Shown one piece after another: positions 8,731-58,997 of a stretch of DNA of 64,000 nt. Under the pieces are notes generated by a model that saw nothing but the letters and a program-made list of their open reading frames with translations, did not search any database and had not been told where the DNA came from. This DNA is from Microbacterium sp. AK009 (GTDB lineage Bacteria > Actinomycetota > Actinomycetes > Actinomycetales > Microbacteriaceae): the NCBI RefSeq assembly GCF_013410955.1, contig NZ_JACCCG010000001.1:665605-729604 (forward strand), in the 5' to 3' direction. The translations under genes and the position numbers were made by a program. The stretch's first letter is position 1. Each line of letters begins with the position of its first letter.

Positions 8731-8814
8731 GATCGTCGGGTCCCGCCGGGGGGTGGGGTGTCGGTCGCCGGTGCGCCCGCGACGTCTGCGCGAACCCGCT
8801 GACTGCGCGAAGAT

Positions 8815-8877
8815 GGCCACGGCGCGAAAACGGCCACGGCGCGTAGAAGAGGCACGGCGCGACAGGGCCACGGCGCG
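8815..8877. repeat. Four direct copies of a GGCCACGGCGCG element upstream of purK
   Basis: GGCCACGGCGCG occurs at 8815-8826, 8832-8843 and 8866-8877, with a one-base-shorter copy at 8851-8861. Copies start about 15-19 bp apart and end 30 bp before the purK start, so they lie in the probable promoter or 5' leader. No known purine regulator site is recognised in them. Confidence 0.65.
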
Positions 8878-8906
8878 CAAGAAGCAGTCGAGCGGAAGGA
8901 CATCCC

Positions 8907-10040
8907 ATGGCGTTGCGAGTAGGAGTCGTCGGCGGAGGACAGTTGGCGCGCATGATGATCGCGCCGGCCGTCGAGCTGGGTGTCGAGCTGCGGGTCCTCG
9001 CCGAGGACGACGGGATGGCTGCCGCGCTCGCCGCCACCGCCGTCGGCGACTACCGCGACGCCGATACCGTGCTGCGGTTCGCCCGCGACGTCGACGTCGT
9101 CACCTTCGACCACGAGCACGTGCCTCAGGATGTCCTCGGCGCCCTCGTCAGCGCCGGTATCGCGGTGCGCCCGGGACCGCACGCCCTGGAGTTCGCCCAG
9201 GACAAGCTGCACATGCGGCGGCGCCTCGCCGAGCTCGGCATGCCCCAGCCCAACTGGGCAGCGGTCAGCGACGCCGCCGGGGTCGCCGCCTTCCTCGCCG
9301 ATCACGGCGGTCGTGCCGTGGTGAAGACTCCGCGGGGCGGCTACGACGGCAAGGGTGTGCGCGTGGTGTCGTCGGAGCACGACGCCGACGACTGGTTCAC
9401 GGCGCTCGCCGAAGACGGTCGCGGCGGCGAGCTCCTCATCGAGGAGCTGGTGCCCTTCACCCGCGAACTCGCCCAGCAGGTCGCGCGACGCCCGTCGGGC
9501 GAGGTGCGGGCGTACCCGCTCGTCGAGACGGTCCAGCGCGACGGCGTCTGCGCCGAGGTGCTCGCCCCGGCCCAGCGCACCGGGGAGCGCGAGCAGCAGG
9601 TCACCAGCGAGATCGCCGTCGGCATCGCCGAAGGGCTGGATGTGTCCGGGATGCTGGCGGTCGAGCTGTTCGAGACCGCCGACCGTGTGCTCGTGAACGA
9701 GCTTGCGATGCGCCCCCACAACAGCGGCCACTGGACGCAGGACGGCGCGGTCACCAGCCAATTCGAGCAGCACCTGCGCGCGGTGCTCGATCTGCCGCTC
9801 GGCGACCCCTCGCCGAAGGCGCCCTGGACGGTGATGATCAACATCCTCGGAGGCCCCGCCGAGGGCGGCCTCACCGACCGCTTCGCCGACGCGATGGCCC
9901 GCCACCCCGAGGCCAAGGTGCACACCTACGGCAAGTCGCCGCGACCGGGTCGCAAGGTGGGGCACGTCAACGTCTCGGGCGACGACCTCGATGACGTCGC
10001 CTACGCCGCGAGGGCGGCGGCGGCGGTGTTCCTGGACTGA
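8907..10040 (+). CDS. purK: 5-(carboxyamino)imidazole ribonucleotide synthase
   Basis: A 377-aa ATP-grasp enzyme that uses ATP and bicarbonate to convert AIR to N5-CAIR in de novo purine synthesis. The N-terminus VGVVGGGQLARMM is the family signature. The ATP-grasp core includes VVKTPRGGYDGKGV at about 132-145, an EEL.PF.RE stretch and LVNELAMRPHNSGHWT near 270. The ATG follows a GGAAGGA ribosome site. purE lies 314 bp downstream on the same strand; in many actinobacteria the two are adjacent or joined, but here a repeat-rich spacer separates them. Confidence 0.93.
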   Translation: MALRVGVVGGGQLARMMIAPAVELGVELRVLAEDDGMAAALAATAVGDYRDADTVLRFARDVDVVTFDHEHVPQDVLGALVSAGIAVRPGPHALEFAQDKLHMRRRLAELGMPQPNWAAVSDAAGVAAFLADHGGRAVVKTPRGGYDGKGVRVVSSEHDADDWFTALAEDGRGGELLIEELVPFTRELAQQVARRPSGEVRAYPLVETVQRDGVCAEVLAPAQRTGEREQQVTSEIAVGIAEGLDVSGMLAVELFETADRVLVNELAMRPHNSGHWTQDGAVTSQFEQHLRAVLDLPLGDPSPKAPWTVMINILGGPAEGGLTDRFADAMARHPEAKVHTYGKSPRPGRKVGHVNVSGDDLDDVAYAARAAAAVFLD

Positions 10041-10124: not shown

Positions 10125-10250
10125 GGTGGCGGAGATGGTCTGCTTTCAGGGCCGTGGGCGACCAATCACGCCACTTCGTTCGGGGTTGGCGGATCGAGGT
10201 GGCGAAGATTGTCGTCTCCCGGGGCCGTGAGCGACCATTTGCGTCACTTC
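10125..10250. repeat. Two tandem 53-bp palindromic units (family shared with 55.7-56.0 kb)
   Basis: Unit A1 spans 10125-10177 and A2 spans 10198-10250: both are 53 bp, with starts 73 bp apart. Each opens with GGTGGCG and closes with a diverged inverted copy (CGACCAnTnnCGnCACTTC), so the ends can pair in an imperfect stem; in A2 about 14 of 19 positions match. The spacer is 20 bp. Five further units with the same length and period lie upstream of fur. See the findings. Confidence 0.85.
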
Positions 10251-10354: not shown

Positions 10355-10921
10355 GTGACTGGGTCTTCCGCGAGCGCTGAATCCGACGCGCGCACCGCGC
10401 CGCTCCACGACACCCCACTGCACGCGGCCGCCGACCCGCTGGTCGGGGTGGTCATGGGGTCCGACTCCGACTGGCGGGTCATGAGCGACGCCTCCCAGGT
10501 GCTCACCGATTTCGGCATCGCGCACGAGGTGGAGGTCGTCTCGGCCCACCGCACGCCCGACAAGCTCATGGCCTACGGCCGCGCGGCGCGGGCCCGCGGC
10601 ATCCGAGTGATCATCGCCGGCGCCGGCGGCGCCGCACACCTGCCGGGCATGCTGGCCTCCGTCACGGCCCTGCCCGTCGTCGGCGTTCCGGTGCAGCTGG
10701 CGACTCTCGATGGACTCGACTCGCTCCTGAGCATCGTGCAGATGCCCGCCGGCATCCCCGTCGCGACCGTGTCGATCAACGGGGCCAAGAACGCCGGGCT
10801 CCTCGCCATCCGGATCATCGGAGCGGGCGACCCTCGCGTCGCCGAGCAGGTCGAGGCGTACGCCCGCGACCTCGAGGCGGCCGTCGAGGAGAAGAACCGC
10901 CGCCTGAAGGAGTCGCTGTGA
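10355..10921 (+). CDS. purE: N5-carboxyaminoimidazole ribonucleotide mutase
   Basis: A 188-aa class I PurE, which converts N5-CAIR from PurK to CAIR. The catalytic core begins [11 protein letters not shown] (residues about 30-40), continues with [12 protein letters not shown] and [15 protein letters not shown], and ends with the usual helical tail. The first 28 residues are a low-complexity extension. GTG at 10355 is chosen because a -10-like TAGCCT sits six bases upstream; the next good candidate would remove part of the core. The stop codon overlaps the next start (GTGA), coupling purine synthesis to an LCP gene, which is probably only operon convenience. Confidence 0.92.
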
Positions 10922-41163: not shown

Positions 41164-41229
41164 CTCGCTCCGCTCGGTCAACGACCGGGCGGGCGTTCTC
41201 GCTTCGCTCGCTCAACGACAGAGTGGGCG
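41164..41229. repeat. 32-bp imperfect direct repeat between convergent genes
   Basis: Copies at 41164-41195 and 41198-41229 share 27 of 32 bases (CTCGCT.CGCTCG.TCAACGAC core), period 34 bp. It fills most of the gap between wzt and the GlfT1-like gene. I infer an intergenic repeat of this genome; other copies would have to be sought outside. Confidence 0.7.
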
Positions 41230-43610: not shown

Positions 43611-45208
43611 GGTGCCGGCTTCACGTCGGTCTTCGATGCCACGGTGCCGGGTGAAGCGGTGCCCGGCGAAGCGGTGCCCGGCGAGTCGGCGCCGGGTGAG
43701 GCGGCGCCGGATGCCGGATCGCTCGGCGCGGAGTCCGTCACCGCGCTGGTGACCGCCCTTGAGGGCGTGGCGACCCGTCCCCGCGGCCGCGGGGTGTCGG
43801 TGCGGAGGGTGTCGATCATCAGCTCACCGCGCTCGATGGCGAGGGACTGCTCGGTCGGACCGACCCCGACGTGCGGGGTCTGCTTGATCTTGCCGCCGAG
43901 CATGACGAGGAACATCCAGCCCCACATCAGCAGCGGTGTGGATTCGGCGACCCCCTGGACGAGGAGGATGGCGCCGACGAGGGTCGGCAGCAGCGTGAGG
44001 GGGGAGTAGGGGCGGTCGGCGCGGAGGTCCCACCGCGGCCGGTCGACGGCGAAGAACCACGCCCGCCAGATGAAGGCCAATAGGGCCGCGGCGAAGATGA
44101 CGACGCCGATGATGCCGAGCTGCAGGTAGACGTCGAGCCACATGTTGTGCGCCTGCATGACGGTCTCGCCGTGATCGACGATCCATCGGTCGAACTGCGG
44201 CTCGGACGGCAGCCAGGGCGTGGCGAAACCCCACCCGACGACGGGACGCTCGTTCGCCCGCTCGAGCACCGCCTGCCAGATGCCCTGGCGTCCGGTGAGG
44301 TCGCTCTCTCGCCCGACGGCACGGAACAGCGCATCCCGGAACACCCACAGCGACACCGCGCCGCCCATCGCGATGACGGCGTAGGCGATGTACCAGCGCG
44401 TGCGCTCGCCGGGCCGCCGGGTGCGGCGCATGAGCTGCACCGTGATGAGCACGACCAGGGCGAGCGCGCCGGCGAGGAACGCCGTGGCAGAGGCCGCCCG
44501 CACGTAGAGGAACGCGGCCAGCGCGATCCAGCCGATGAGCAGCACCCGGCGCGGAGCGCGGACGGCGAAGCGGATGGCGAAGACGATGATGCCGAGGAGC
44601 GCCACGGGGCCGAGAAGATTGGCGTTCCCCATGAGGCCCTGCAGGCGCCCGCCGTCGAACAGATTGTCGCGCGACCAGTAGACGATGGGGTCGTAGTCCA
44701 CACCCGGGTCGGGGAGGACGAAGCCGGGCAGAAGCGGCCCCTGCACGAAGAGCGACACCGCCAGCTCGAACAGCAGCGACAGCCCGAGGACCCACTTCAG
44801 CGCCGAGGCGACGGCACGGATGATCTCGCGCCACGTCAGCATCGCCGCTACGAAGAGTCCCTGCAGGGTCGTGAGCGCGAGCAGGAGCCAGGTGAGGACG
44901 GATGTGCCGAGCCAGGCCGACCACGTCAGCGACAGCGCCGCCCAGGCCACGTAGCCGAGGGCGATCCACGGGAGTCGTCGCCACTGGAAGGGCGGACGGA
45001 TGACCACCCAGGCGATCACCGACACCACGCCGGCGGAGATCATCAGCACCCCGGCCCCGGCGTCGCCGAGCGCGTTGACCCAGCCGACACTTGCGAGCAT
45101 CGAGGCGAGCACGAAGATGCACCAGGCGCGAAGGAGCAGGTGCCCTGTCTTCTCGCGCACGGGCGGGCCGGGGTGTGCCGCGACCGGATGCTTCGTGTGG
45201 ACGGCCAT
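43607..45208 (-). CDS. O-antigen ligase/polymerase-like membrane protein with pentapeptide-repeat tail
   Basis: A 533-aa protein with about 12 hydrophobic segments and the same family layout as its neighbour. GLMGNANLLGPVALLGII lies in the middle. A large loop has RQGIWQAVLERANERPVVGWGF and HGETVMQAHNMWLDVYLQLGIIG, the Wzy_C-like signature with its histidines. The C-terminal 60 residues are a low-complexity cytosolic tail with SPGTA-type pentapeptides encoded by a 15-bp DNA repeat. It diverges from manA. Confidence 0.75.
   Translation of the reverse strand: MAVHTKHPVAAHPGPPVREKTGHLLLRAWCIFVLASMLASVGWVNALGDAGAGVLMISAGVVSVIAWVVIRPPFQWRRLPWIALGYVAWAALSLTWSAWLGTSVLTWLLLALTTLQGLFVAAMLTWREIIRAVASALKWVLGLSLLFELAVSLFVQGPLLPGFVLPDPGVDYDPIVYWSRDNLFDGGRLQGLMGNANLLGPVALLGIIVFAIRFAVRAPRRVLLIGWIALAAFLYVRAASATAFLAGALALVVLITVQLMRRTRRPGERTRWYIAYAVIAMGGAVSLWVFRDALFRAVGRESDLTGRQGIWQAVLERANERPVVGWGFATPWLPSEPQFDRWIVDHGETVMQAHNMWLDVYLQLGIIGVVIFAAALLAFIWRAWFFAVDRPRWDLRADRPYSPLTLLPTLVGAILLVQGVAESTPLLMWGWMFLVMLGGKIKQTPHVGVGPTEQSLAIERGELMIDTLRTDTPRPRGRVATPSRAVTSAVTDSAPSDPASGAASPGADSPGTASPGTASPGTVASKTDVKPAP
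43641..43715 (-). repeat. Five 15-bp tandem repeats in the tail of the O-antigen ligase-like gene
   Basis: Units at 43641, 43656, 43671, 43686 and 43701 follow a GCGGTGCCCGGCGAA consensus with a few changes. On the minus strand they encode SPGTA-like pentapeptides. Copy number may vary between strains without frameshift. Confidence 0.8.
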
Positions 45209-53751: not shown

Positions 53752-54657
53752 TCACCGCTGGGGGAACCCGCGCGGTGCCGCGGTCTCACCCGCGGTGAGG
53801 GAGGCCACTCGTCGCGCCTCCAGCACGAGCGCGCGGTACTCGCGGTCGCGGCGGATGCTCGCCACCGCCCGCAGAAGCGTCTCGGGGTCGGTGGGTGGCA
53901 GCGGCGAGACGTGCACGGCCACCTCGTTCGCCAGCGACATCGCCACGCGTGCGCGGGCGGCGGGCTCGAGGTTCGCGGCGTTGCGGACGAACTGCGCGAT
54001 GCGTCGCGTGAGCGGGTCGGGCAGCCGCGCGACATCCGCGATCGTCGCCCAGCCCTCGAGCGCGGGCGGCATGCCGGGCGCAGGCGCGGGCAGGCGCGGC
54101 GTGCGGGTGCGCTCGGCATAGGTGCCGGCCAGCAGATCGCCGAGCCGCTGCGAGCGCGGGGTGAAGGCGCCCACGATGGCAGCGAGGGCCCCGACGGTGA
54201 ACCAGATCTCAAGGACGCCGACGAGGGCGCGGATGAACGCCTGCCTGAATCCGGAGGCGCCGCCGTCGCTTCGGACGATGCGCCCGCCGACGACGAGCTT
54301 TCCGACGCTGCGGCCGCGGGTGGCGGTCTCCACCACCGTGGGGAGGACGACGAGCACGAGCACGATGACCGCGATGGTGAGGATCGGGGTCACCACCGGG
54401 TCGAGGACGCCGGAGGCGGTGAGCCACCCGGCGGCGATCGCGAACAGGATGAGGATCGCGGCGCCGATGAGGACGTCGATCAGCGTGCCGAGGGCTCGGA
54501 GGAAGAAGCCGATCGGCTGCACGTCGAGGGCGACGGCCTCGCCGGTGAGGATCTCGTCCTGGTCGATCTCGACGATCTGCGGGCGGGTCGCCGCGCTGTT
54601 TCGCGGATCGGTCCCGGCGCGCGGAGAGGACGTGGTCGCCGAGCCGTCGGAGGGCAT
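53752..54657 (-). CDS. RDD-family membrane protein
   Basis: A 301-aa protein. The RDD domain starts GFFLRALGTLIDVLIGAAIL (about 50-70), with hydrophobic helices at about 55-80, 88-110 and 140-165 and the motif GRSVGKLVVGGRIVRSDGG between them. After SQRLGDLLAGTYAERT comes a soluble helical domain of about 130 residues. RDD proteins are membrane proteins of uncertain, possibly transport-related, role. It starts only 16 bp from the divergent SpoIIM-like gene, its common partner in actinobacteria. Confidence 0.8.
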   Translation of the reverse strand: MPSDGSATTSSPRAGTDPRNSAATRPQIVEIDQDEILTGEAVALDVQPIGFFLRALGTLIDVLIGAAILILFAIAAGWLTASGVLDPVVTPILTIAVIVLVLVVLPTVVETATRGRSVGKLVVGGRIVRSDGGASGFRQAFIRALVGVLEIWFTVGALAAIVGAFTPRSQRLGDLLAGTYAERTRTPRLPAPAPGMPPALEGWATIADVARLPDPLTRRIAQFVRNAANLEPAARARVAMSLANEVAVHVSPLPPTDPETLLRAVASIRRDREYRALVLEARRVASLTAGETAAPRGFPQR

Positions 54658-54673: not shown

Positions 54674-55669
54674 ATGGACCTCGACGCCCTCACCGCTGCG
54701 CGGCGGGAGGAGTGGGCGCGACTGGACGAACTCAGCAGGCGCCGTCGCCTGACCGGGGCGGAGGTCGACGAGCTCGTCGACCGGTACCGCGCGGCGTCGG
54801 CGGATCTCGCCGAGATCAAGACGACGGCCGGGCGAACACCCGAGGGCGACCACGTCTCGACGATCCTCGCCCGGGCGCGGCTGCGGCTGACCGGTGGGCG
54901 GGAGAACCCGCTCCGACAGATCCCCCGGTTCTTCCTCCTGCAGCTGCCCGCAGCGCTGTACCGGCTGCGCTGGACGACGCTCGTGATCGCACTGTCCTTC
55001 ATCGCCGTCGGCGCGGTCGTGGCGTTCTGGATCTCCTCCGACCCGGCGCTCGTGGCGACGCTCGGGCCGCAGGCGCAGCTGGAGTACTACGCCGAGGAGC
55101 AGTTCACCTCGTACTACAGCGAGAACCCCGCCGCCGCCTTCGCCGGGACGGTCTGGACCAACAACGCCTGGATCGCGGCCCAGTGCGTCATGTTCGGGAT
55201 CACCGGGATCTGGCCCGTGATGGTCCTGGTGCAGAACGCCGTCGCCGTCGGCACAGCCGCAGCGATCATGCTCGCGTTCGACCGCGGCGACGTCTTCATC
55301 CTGTTCATCCTTCCGCACGGGCTGCTCGAGCTGACCTGCATCTTCGTCGCCGGCGCGGCGGGACTCCACATCTTCTGGGCGTGGGTGGCGCCCGGCCGTC
55401 GGCCGCGAGCCGAGGCGCTCGCCGCCGCGGGGCGCTCGCTCGCGACGGTGGCGATCGGCCTCGTCATCGCCCTGGCCGTCGCCGGCGTCATCGAGGGCTT
55501 CGTCACGGCGCAACCCTGGCCGTGGCCGGTGAAGATCGGCATCGGTGCGCTCGCGCTCGGCGCGTTCCTGGCCTACATGCTCGTCGTCGGCCGCCGCGCC
55601 GAGCGGCTCGGAGAGACCGGTGACATGACCGAGTTTGAAACCGGCACGCCCACGCTCGTCGCCGGCTGA
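54674..55669 (+). CDS. SpoIIM-like (stage II sporulation protein M family) membrane protein
   Basis: A 331-aa membrane protein. A helical cytosolic N-terminus (MDLDALTAARREEWARLDEL... YRAASADLAEIK) precedes five or six hydrophobic segments. The family core WTNNAWIAAQCVMFGITGIWPVM and FILPHGLLELTCIFVAGAAG, with its conserved HG.LE, is clear. The family name comes from Bacillus spore formation, but in non-sporulating actinobacteria it is a general membrane protein often paired with RDD genes and near DUF58/MoxR loci, as here. It is followed by a 476-bp repeat-filled gap. Confidence 0.85.
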   Translation: MDLDALTAARREEWARLDELSRRRRLTGAEVDELVDRYRAASADLAEIKTTAGRTPEGDHVSTILARARLRLTGGRENPLRQIPRFFLLQLPAALYRLRWTTLVIALSFIAVGAVVAFWISSDPALVATLGPQAQLEYYAEEQFTSYYSENPAAAFAGTVWTNNAWIAAQCVMFGITGIWPVMVLVQNAVAVGTAAAIMLAFDRGDVFILFILPHGLLELTCIFVAGAAGLHIFWAWVAPGRRPRAEALAAAGRSLATVAIGLVIALAVAGVIEGFVTAQPWPWPVKIGIGALALGAFLAYMLVVGRRAERLGETGDMTEFETGTPTLVAG

Positions 55670-55699
55670 GCCCCTCGCCGCGGGGCGCAGCGCGGCGAA

Positions 55700-56046
55700 G
55701 GTGGCGCAGATGTTGGCCTTGGGCGACTGGAGGTCGCCATGTGCGCCACTTCCTTGTCGGGCGGGGGCGCGAAGGTGGCGCAGATGGTGGCTTTGCGCCT
55801 CTGCAGGTCGCCATGTGCGCCACTTCCTTGTCGGGCGGGGCGGCGAAGGTGGCGCAGATGGTGGCCTTGGGCGACTGGAGGTCGCCATGTGCGTCACTTC
55901 GGTGGGAGCGGATGCGACCGTGTGGCGAGATTGGTCGCGTGGCGGGGCGCGGGGCGACCATCTGTGCCACCCCGATGGCGTCGAGCTGATCGAGGTGGCG
56001 AAAGTGGTCGTGGTGGGGGTGCGGGGGCGACCATTTGTGCCACCCC
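55700..56046. repeat. Array of five 53-bp palindromic units
   Basis: Units lie at 55700-55752, 55774-55826, 55848-55900, 55921-55973 and 55994-56046, each 53 bp with starts 74, 74, 73 and 73 bp apart. Each opens with G/TGTGGCG and closes with an inverted copy ending GTGCCACCCC or GCGCCACTTC. In the last unit 14 of 17 end bases pair. Units one to three are nearly identical and share the 21-bp spacer CTTGTCGGGCGGGG-type; units four and five form a second subtype resembling the copies near purE. Confidence 0.9.
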
Positions 56047-56066
56047 GATTCAGCACGGGCGAACGA

Positions 56067-56100
56067 GGTGGTTCCTTGGCCGAAAGGGGAGGGAGCCGCC
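56067..56100. repeat. Degenerate sixth unit in phase with the array
   Basis: GGTGG at 56067 falls exactly 73 bp after the start of unit five, behind a similar CGA-ended spacer. The rest (TTCCTTGGCC then GGGGAGGGAGCCGCC) has lost the pattern, and the fur promoter follows. Confidence 0.5.
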
Positions 56101-56108
56101 GCGCGTTG

Positions 56109-58997
<2,889 letters not shown>

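What the first reader, a model, noticed from the sequence alone, without database searches (positions are those of the whole stretch)
55700..56046. Array of five 53-bp imperfect palindromes with a strict 73-74 bp period upstream of fur
Five units of exactly 53 bp begin at 55700, 55774, 55848, 55921 and 55994. Their ends are inverted copies (GGTGGCG...CGCCACC type), so each can fold into a hairpin as DNA or RNA. Constant length, constant period and two subtypes (units 1-3 versus 4-5) suggest a regular array that has grown by unit duplication. It is intergenic and upstream of an iron/peroxide regulator. I know of no named family matching this, though REP/BIME-type elements are similar in principle. 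It could affect read-through from the SpoIIM-like gene, bind a protein, or be a relic of a transposable hairpin.
Basis: seen in the sequence. Interest (0 to 1): 0.82.

Follow-up and report, generated by a model that had tools for sequence, protein, structure and literature searches.

The report
Phased palindrome arrays in Microbacterium genomes
The five evenly spaced palindromes belong to a repeat family found in many related soil bacteria and, as far as could be searched, not described; their fixed size and whole-DNA-turn spacing suggest rows of docking sites for an unknown DNA-binding protein rather than RNA hairpins.

Summary
The array is real: five 49-bp palindromic cores at 55701, 55775, 55849, 55922 and 55995 (period 74, 74, 73, 73), between a SpoIIM gene and a fur-type gene. 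A second, two-unit array lies at 10126/10199. The genome holds at least 31 units at 10 sites; the sister species Microbacterium kunmingense at least 51 at 13 sites, nine of them at this site.

The core is bipartite. The inner box TGGTCGC-N15-GCGACCA recurs in Microbacteriaceae; the outer arms differ by lineage but mostly stay complementary. The 15-bp gap is nearly rigid (71 of 76 array members; 33 of 38 not fetched for it). Spacings cluster at 62-64, 72-74, 83-85, 91-95 and 103-105 bp, with a periodogram peak at 10.45 bp, one DNA turn. Units are intergenic and favour convergent gene ends (6 of 10 sites against 11 of 117 gene pairs). Mismatch types show no clear strand preference, no T-tract follows, and no REP-type transposase was found in 16 element-bearing genomes.

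Best reading: binding platforms on one DNA face for an unidentified symmetric protein at 3' gene ends, changing in number by unit duplication. No protein is identified and nothing was tested at the bench. RNA-hairpin and mobile-element readings remain open.

The parts
55701..55749 (+). unit 1, 49-bp palindromic core (subtype A)
   Evidence: CM hit 55697-55753, 65.8 bits
55775..55823 (+). unit 2, 49-bp core (subtype A)
   Evidence: CM hit 65.4 bits
55849..55897 (+). unit 3, 49-bp core (subtype A)
   Evidence: CM hit 67.2 bits
55922..55970 (+). unit 4, 49-bp core (subtype B: TGGTCGC-N15-GCGACCA inner box exact at 55932-55960)
   Evidence: CM hit 59.8 bits
55995..56043 (+). unit 5, 49-bp core (subtype B)
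   Evidence: CM hit 64.5 bits
10126..10174 (+). second array, unit 1
   Evidence: CM hit 60.4 bits
10199..10247 (+). second array, unit 2 (73 bp after unit 1)
   Evidence: CM hit 65 bits
54656..55669 (+). SpoIIM-family membrane protein gene; 31 bp lie between its stop and unit 1 (start codon approximate; my caller put it at 54320)
   Evidence: (own gene caller), Pfam PF01944 2.1e-40
56146..56613 (+). Fur-family regulator gene, downstream of the array; a peroxidase (katG-type) gene follows at 56688-58997
   Evidence: Pfam PF01475 7.4e-19, PF00141 7.3e-73
8952..10040 (+). purK, upstream of the second array
   Evidence: Pfam ATP-grasp and PurK_C
10355..10921 (+). purE, downstream of the second array
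   Evidence: Pfam AIRC

Best explanation
Each unit is a DNA binding site for a symmetric (dimeric) protein whose subunits each touch two boxes about one helical turn apart: an outer box (GTGGCG here, lineage-specific elsewhere) and an inner box (TGGTCGC, kept across the family). The two halves face each other across a fixed 15-bp gap, about two turns between inner boxes. Units are repeated at whole numbers of turns (6 to 10), so bound proteins would line up on one face of the DNA and could interact or bend it. The arrays sit at 3' ends of genes, often between convergent genes, where such a platform could insulate neighbouring transcription or anchor chromosome structure. Copy number changes by duplication of the whole unit plus linker. 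Shown by computation: the repeat family, near-rigid gap, phased spacing, intergenic location with an excess of convergent sites, copy-number differences. Inferred: that a protein binds, that it has two DNA contacts per subunit, and the insulating or architectural role. The protein is unknown.
For: Rigid geometry: with gaps of 9-21 allowed, 71 of 76 non-identical array members have a 15-bp gap; of the 38 that do not match the N15 fetch pattern themselves, 33 do. In six genomes picked for their N15 counts (G000, G090, G100, G221, G283, G481) exact inner boxes number 36 at N15 and 3 at N12-14 together. Phasing: spacings of 118 unit pairs are 73 (43), 74 (17), 84 (9), with 62-64, 83-85, 91-95 and 103-105 also seen. 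43 linker clusters (117 pairs) give p 1.6e-5 at 10.5 bp; the 38 at <=108 bp give R 0.61, p 8e-7, periodogram maximum 10.45 bp in a 5-20 bp scan; without 70-77 bp, 25 clusters, R 0.50, p 0.002, smoothed-null p 0.0016. By genome: 46 merged values from 27 genomes, R 0.57 (best period 10.7); 30 outside 70-77 bp, R 0.44, p 0.003, or 0.028 with the period free between 10 and 11. Control: in loci L233-L291, 51 pairs that match the pattern but fail the arm test are not phased (R 0.11, p 0.52), 16 that pass are (R 0.58). Location: 0 of 58 arm-bearing hits in called genes against 6 of 25 others; 6 of 10 own sites convergent against 11 of 117 gene pairs, p 1e-4. Stem mismatches in 80 units: G.T 116, A.C 135.
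Against: No binding protein was found. The phasing test was devised after seeing the data; genomes are related, and linker clustering was crude (medians of 78.5 and 79 look like mixtures of 73-74 and 84). The five clusters above 108 bp share another phase (3.5 of 10.5), and 70, 77, 80, 91-92, 97, 100 and 107 bp also occur. Neighbours in an array may share the 15-bp gap by descent, and most loci were fetched with N15 patterns. Over all 398 family genomes the inner box with N12-14 occurs in 92 genomes against 42 for N15: chance matches are common, and only the genomes with several copies show the N15 excess. My arm test is strict: the group of 25 without arms includes real units such as the window's unit 4 (L208, 6 of 13), and an early scan with it found 5 of 7 window units. 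On the transcribed strand of co-directional arrays G.T exceeds A.C 94 to 64, in 7 of 10 arrays, which leans to RNA pairing, although ortholog pairs and repeated units are not independent and three arrays go the other way. Lineage-specific but complementary outer arms are also what hairpin selection would give.
Confidence: 0.5

Rival explanations
1. RNA-level hairpins: each unit is a stem-loop in the 3' untranslated region that stops transcription or protects the transcript end, in both directions between convergent genes.
For: Units fold well as RNA on the + strand (seven folded, z -2.1 to -12). Placement after stop codons, often between convergent genes. Outer arms change by lineage but remain complementary. 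Transcribed-strand G.T 94 against A.C 64, 7 of 10 arrays.
Against: A terminator does not need a fixed 15-bp centre, sequence-specific inner boxes, or units at whole DNA turns. No terminator-like T-tract in 55500-56300 (0 found). G.T and A.C mismatches are about equal over 80 units (116 against 135) and near column expectation on the ++ sites (58 and 48 observed, 56 and 43 expected). Arrays of up to nine hairpins seem more than termination needs.
Confidence: 0.22
2. A REP/MITE-like mobile palindrome moved by an unknown enzyme, with arrays as by-products; outer arms follow the enzyme's changing specificity.
For: Dispersed copies that mostly share outer arms inside a genome and have different ones between lineages. 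Site presence differs between sister species: 8 sites shared; in the window's genome the place of a 7-unit array (L107) is a gap of about 20 bp between genes (L115), and purK-purE lacks the array in M. kunmingense (read by eye).
Against: No Y1 transposase (PF01797) in 16 of 16 element-bearing genomes; other recombinases were not searched for. Tens of copies only. Flanks of occupied and empty sites differ over more than the element and show no target duplication that I could see. Transposition does not explain helical phasing.
Confidence: 0.17
3. Neutral minisatellites: a palindromic stretch that expands and contracts by slippage, without function.
For: Unit number varies between sister species (5/9, 2/5, 4/7, 1/2 at four shared sites, equal at the other four) and neighbouring units are near-copies.
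Against: Inner box kept across genera, near-rigid 15-bp gap, phased spacings with unrelated linkers and absence from called genes are not expected of neutral repeats.
Confidence: 0.08

Closest known systems
REP / BIME elements with RAYT transposases (PMC2817692: passages, part of the abstract among them; PMC3733652: start of the abstract and passages)
   Same: Extragenic palindromes, repeated in a genome, sometimes in regular clusters; proposed protein-binding and chromosome-organising roles.
   Different: Core 49 bp rather than 20-40; no GTAG end seen; tens of copies rather than >100; largely head-to-tail by model score; no Y1 transposase in 16 of 16 genomes; near-fixed 15-bp centre; spacing in whole DNA turns.
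Centromere-type arrays such as sopC of plasmid F (recalled, from no call)
   Same: Tandem units of constant length, each with an inverted repeat bound by a protein.
   Different: Here many small arrays at gene ends on a chromosome; no partition gene among the 19 flanking proteins scanned with Pfam (3 of them without a match; the peroxidase gene beyond fur was a 20th).
MIRU minisatellites of mycobacteria (recalled, from no call)
   Same: Actinobacterial intergenic tandem repeats of 50-100 bp with variable copy number.
   Different: Units here are palindromic, with a family-wide conserved inner box and phased spacing.
Intrinsic transcription terminators
   Same: Stem-loop after a stop codon, often between convergent genes.
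   Different: No T-tract; sequence-specific boxes; near-fixed gap; multiple phased copies.

Membership tests
REP/BIME (RAYT-associated) | Y1 (REP-associated) tyrosine transposase in the genome | tested here: not met
   PF01797: 0 matches in own genome and in 0 of 15 other element-bearing genomes; 5 of 14 control genomes, E. coli among them, ring
REP/BIME (RAYT-associated) | GTAG (or similar tag) at the foot of a 20-40 bp palindrome | tested here: not met
   20 aligned units: core 49 bp, flanks such as CGAGG or GAAGG, no GTAG at the ends
REP/BIME (RAYT-associated) | Usually more than 100 copies per genome (PMC2817692 abstract) | tested here: not met
   31 distinct places at 10 sites in G000 (150 of 7599 candidates scored, a lower bound) and 51 at 13 sites in M. 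kunmingense (150 of 7883 scored)
REP/BIME (RAYT-associated) | Extragenic | tested here: met
   0 of 58 arm-bearing hits inside called genes; 10 of 10 own sites intergenic
REP/BIME (RAYT-associated) | Regularly spaced units in alternating orientation | tested here: inconclusive
   Regular spacing yes; by model score the units of each own-genome array lie one way round, but units are near-symmetric, and mixed strands occur in L107 and L109
Intrinsic terminator | GC-rich stem followed by a T-run | tested here: not met
   0 found in 55500-56300
Known RNA family | Match to an Rfam model at its gathering score | tested here: not met
   0 matches in the whole window
Protein-binding site array | Fixed spacing of half-sites and whole-turn spacing of units | tested here: met
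   with the exceptions listed under evidence against
Protein-binding site array | A protein that binds it | not testable with these tools
   needs pull-down, EMSA or ChIP

The most novel reading that the evidence does not exclude
Microbacteriaceae carry an unrecognised sequence-specific architectural system: a two-headed DNA-binding protein decorates helically phased palindrome arrays at 3' gene ends, marking the ends of transcription units. Its outer-box specificity drifts by lineage and most sites in a genome are converted to match, while the inner box stays fixed across the family.
Probability: 0.3. Interest if true: 0.82.

Novelty: new variant of a known kind. Interest (0 to 1): 0.62.

Why it matters
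Repeated palindromes between genes are best known as REP elements, which are tied to a transposase. Here is a family in an actinobacterial group in which that transposase was not found, with a geometry (near-rigid gap, whole-turn spacing) that points to a specific DNA-binding protein. If such a protein exists it would be a new chromosome-organising or insulating factor, and the arrays give a ready bait to find it. The lineage-specific outer arms would also make co-evolution of a protein and its many sites directly observable.

Tried and rejected
Considered and set aside: coding repeat (units lie outside called genes); known RNA family (none); tRNA/tmRNA (none in the window; one array, L038, lies next to what reads as a tRNA gene by eye); intrinsic terminator; Y1 transposase; attC or telomere-resolvase-type sites (from memory only, not tested). 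Compensatory-pair counting on 20 units exceeded the shuffles only weakly (31 and 22 of 500 shuffles reach the observed paired percentage and covariation score; 151 and 277 of 500 reach the counts of pairs with double changes and of pair types), so covariation inside one genome does not decide between hairpin and symmetric protein site.

Limits: the global alignments of occupied and empty sites were poor where gaps are long, so I read the junctions by eye. My gene caller is home-made, trained on 16 long window ORFs, and missed the gene left of L040, which I placed by eye, and misjudged L100, treated as co-directional. Spacings used were typed and merged within a genome; four weak single values (G520, G481, G307, G283) were left out of that test, and one 43-bp pair was dropped. 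Two units of 56 nt (L100 2863, L101 2914) were left out of the 80-unit set. A shared site (L038/L103) has 4 units in both species at E up to 0.01; a fifth in L038 is only a 19.9-bit match. Literature: searches listed nothing that I recognised as this repeat, from titles and abstract starts; only open-licence papers are held. Of PMC12306157, PMC3733652 and PMC2817692 I saw passages, none in full. No structure prediction was run, there being no candidate protein.

Full report
Observation. The array is present as described. Its constant block is a 49-bp imperfect palindrome starting at 55701, 55775, 55849, 55922 and 55995, so the period is 74, 74, 73, 73. It begins 31 bp after the stop of a SpoIIM-family gene and ends about 100 bp before a Fur-family gene that is followed by a katG-type peroxidase gene. 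The window holds a second, two-unit array of the same family at 10126 and 10199, between purK and purE.

Copies in the genome. A covariance model from 20 units (A1, R1) finds 31 distinct places at 10 sites in the 3.46-Mb assembly (57 matches on either strand at E up to 0.01, 150 of 7599 candidates scored). Nine of the 10 sites carry two or more units, mostly 72-74 bp apart, some 70, 83-84 or 92-94. In a search of 58 genomes (own genome included) seven had a match at 1e-5, all in the same genus; stricter filters and a model made from this genome mean that this undercounts.

Sister species. A pattern scan of the GTDB genomes names Microbacterium kunmingense JXJ CY 27-2 as the richest holder (of 17 stretches 12 were Microbacterium, 8 of them M. 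kunmingense, and 5 were other organisms with core lengths other than 49; one Microbacterium stretch, L053, has a 53-bp core). Its genome has 51 distinct units at 13 sites (150 of 7883 candidates scored). Eight sites are shared with the window's genome by flanking homology. Unit numbers differ at four of them (M. kunmingense first): 9 against 5 at the SpoIIM-fur site, 7 against 4, 5 against 2, 2 against 1; the other four have equal numbers (4 and 4 twice, 2 and 2 twice). At the SpoIIM-fur site most extra copies keep the 73-bp step (steps 72, 73 five times, 74, and one of 114), so arrays grow or shrink by whole units. Some sites are occupied in only one species; by eye, the place of a seven-unit array (L107) is a gap of about 20 bp between two genes in the window's genome (L115), with no obvious target duplication.

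A family-wide bipartite design. The inner part TGGTCGC-N15-GCGACCA was searched on its own. In 398 Microbacteriaceae genomes it matches in 42, up to 8 per genome, while the reversed control does not exceed 1 per genome. Around many of these matches lie outer arms of about 12 bp that are complementary to each other but differ by lineage: GTGGCG in the window's species, TTCGAATCGCGC in G090, GCGGACGCGAA in G283 and G481, GGGGTCGCTCG in G221, TTTGCCGC-type in G097, GGTGGTCCCA in G100. There are exceptions inside a genome: one of six G283 copies (L216) has a different, still complementary arm. Of 83 non-identical hits (gap 15 or 16) in loci of other genomes, plus L208 of the own genome, 58 have arms matching at 9 or more of 13 positions; none of these is in a called gene, against 6 of the 25 others (units of one array count separately, and the 25 include real units such as the window's unit 4).

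Near-rigid gap. Allowing any gap from 9 to 21, 71 of 76 non-identical array members have exactly 15 (two each with 14 and 16, one with 20). Most loci had been fetched with N15 patterns, so I repeated the count on the 38 members that do not match that pattern: 33 have 15; shared descent within arrays remains a caveat. In six genomes picked for high N15 counts (G000, G090, G100, G221, G283, G481) the exact inner box occurs 36 times with N15 and 3 times with N12, N13 or N14 together. Over all 398 genomes N12-14 matches occur in 92, at most 4 per genome, which is the chance level to be kept in mind for single matches. A loop of an RNA hairpin has little reason to be this constant; two half-sites on DNA do. 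Inner boxes are 22 bp centre to centre, and outer and inner box starts are 10 bp apart in the window's units, so all four boxes fall near one DNA face.

Phased spacing. Spacings of 118 non-identical neighbouring pairs are 73 (43), 74 (17), 84 (9), 72 and 95 (5 each), with 62-64, 83, 85, 91-94 and 103-105 among the rest. Collapsed to 43 clusters of similar linker sequence (117 pairs), they show a 10.5-bp period (p 1.6e-5); the 38 clusters at 108 bp or less give R 0.61 and a periodogram maximum at 10.45 bp in a scan from 5 to 20 bp. Without the dominant 70-77 bp group 25 clusters remain phased (R 0.50, p 0.002; 0.0016 against a smoothed null). A count by genome agrees: 46 merged values from 27 genomes, R 0.57, best period 10.7 in a scan from 8 to 16; 30 values without the 70-77 group, R 0.44, p 0.003, or 0.028 when the period may vary between 10 and 11. 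Pairs that match the pattern but fail the arm test are a built-in control: in loci L233-L291, 51 such pairs are not phased (R 0.11), 16 that pass are (R 0.58). Against this, the five clusters above 108 bp have another phase, and 70, 77, 80, 91-92, 97, 100 and 107 bp occur. The test was made after seeing the data, and related genomes are not independent.

Location. At the 10 own sites the flanking genes are convergent at six and co-directional at four, never divergent; the background of 117 neighbouring gene pairs has 11 convergent (p 1e-4). The zero for divergent is not significant (p 0.34). Across other genomes 28 of 58 arm-bearing hits lie between convergent genes, 21 between co-directional ones, 7 divergent and 2 undecided. 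The neighbouring genes scanned share no theme: PaaX-type regulator, ribosomal protein L17, NifU-like, CbiQ, serine dehydratase, glutaredoxin, molybdopterin oxidoreductase, PurK/PurE, SpoIIM/Fur and others; three of 20 proteins had no Pfam match.

RNA or DNA. Units fold well as RNA. If the RNA stem were selected, G.T should exceed A.C mismatches on the transcribed strand. Over 80 units from both species the stem has 116 G.T and 135 A.C. On the transcribed strand of the 10 co-directional arrays it is 94 to 64, with seven arrays for G.T and three for A.C; two pairs of these arrays are orthologs, so this is about five against three. I take it as no clear preference, with a lean to RNA that I cannot exclude. 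No T-tract terminator was found.

Mobility. No Y1 transposase was found in the own genome or in 15 other element-bearing genomes, so this is not a RAYT-driven REP system as far as tested. Another enzyme is possible and was not searched for.

Verdict. The finding is real and larger than reported. The most economical reading is a family of DNA binding platforms at 3' gene ends in Microbacteriaceae, with an unknown symmetric protein that contacts two boxes per half-site. The binding, the protein and the role are inferences. The paper searches that I ran listed nothing on it.

Noticed in passing
L188, L190 and L226-L229 (genomes G520 and G468, another genus of the family): Runs of the half-site CTGGTCGCAG at about 22-23 bp steps in direct and inverted orientation (by eye), unlike the single bipartite palindromes elsewhere.
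   Followed up: no
L046 and L049 1501-1558 (genome G027), L047 (genome G024): A variant with TTGTCGC or TCGTCGC-type inner boxes, GAGGTGCC outer arms and a 16-bp gap; the L046 and L049 stems are almost perfect.
   Followed up: partly
L065 5199-6086 against L035 3010-3094: At one shared site the sister species has about 700 bp more (it reads as a reverse-strand gene by eye) and subtype-B units, while the window's genome has one subtype-A unit: the element type differs at the same place.
   Followed up: partly
L107 2953-3447 (M. kunmingense): In the seven-unit array the central sequences alternate between two types over several units, as if pairs of units were duplicated (by eye).
   Followed up: no
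window 8805-8884, 41164-41229, 43642-43710: Other short tandem repeats of 17, 34 and 15 bp listed by Tandem Repeats Finder, not related to the palindrome family by eye.
   Followed up: no
L184 1541-1773 (genome G060): Units 84 and 119 bp apart: an array with one in-phase and one out-of-phase spacing.
   Followed up: no
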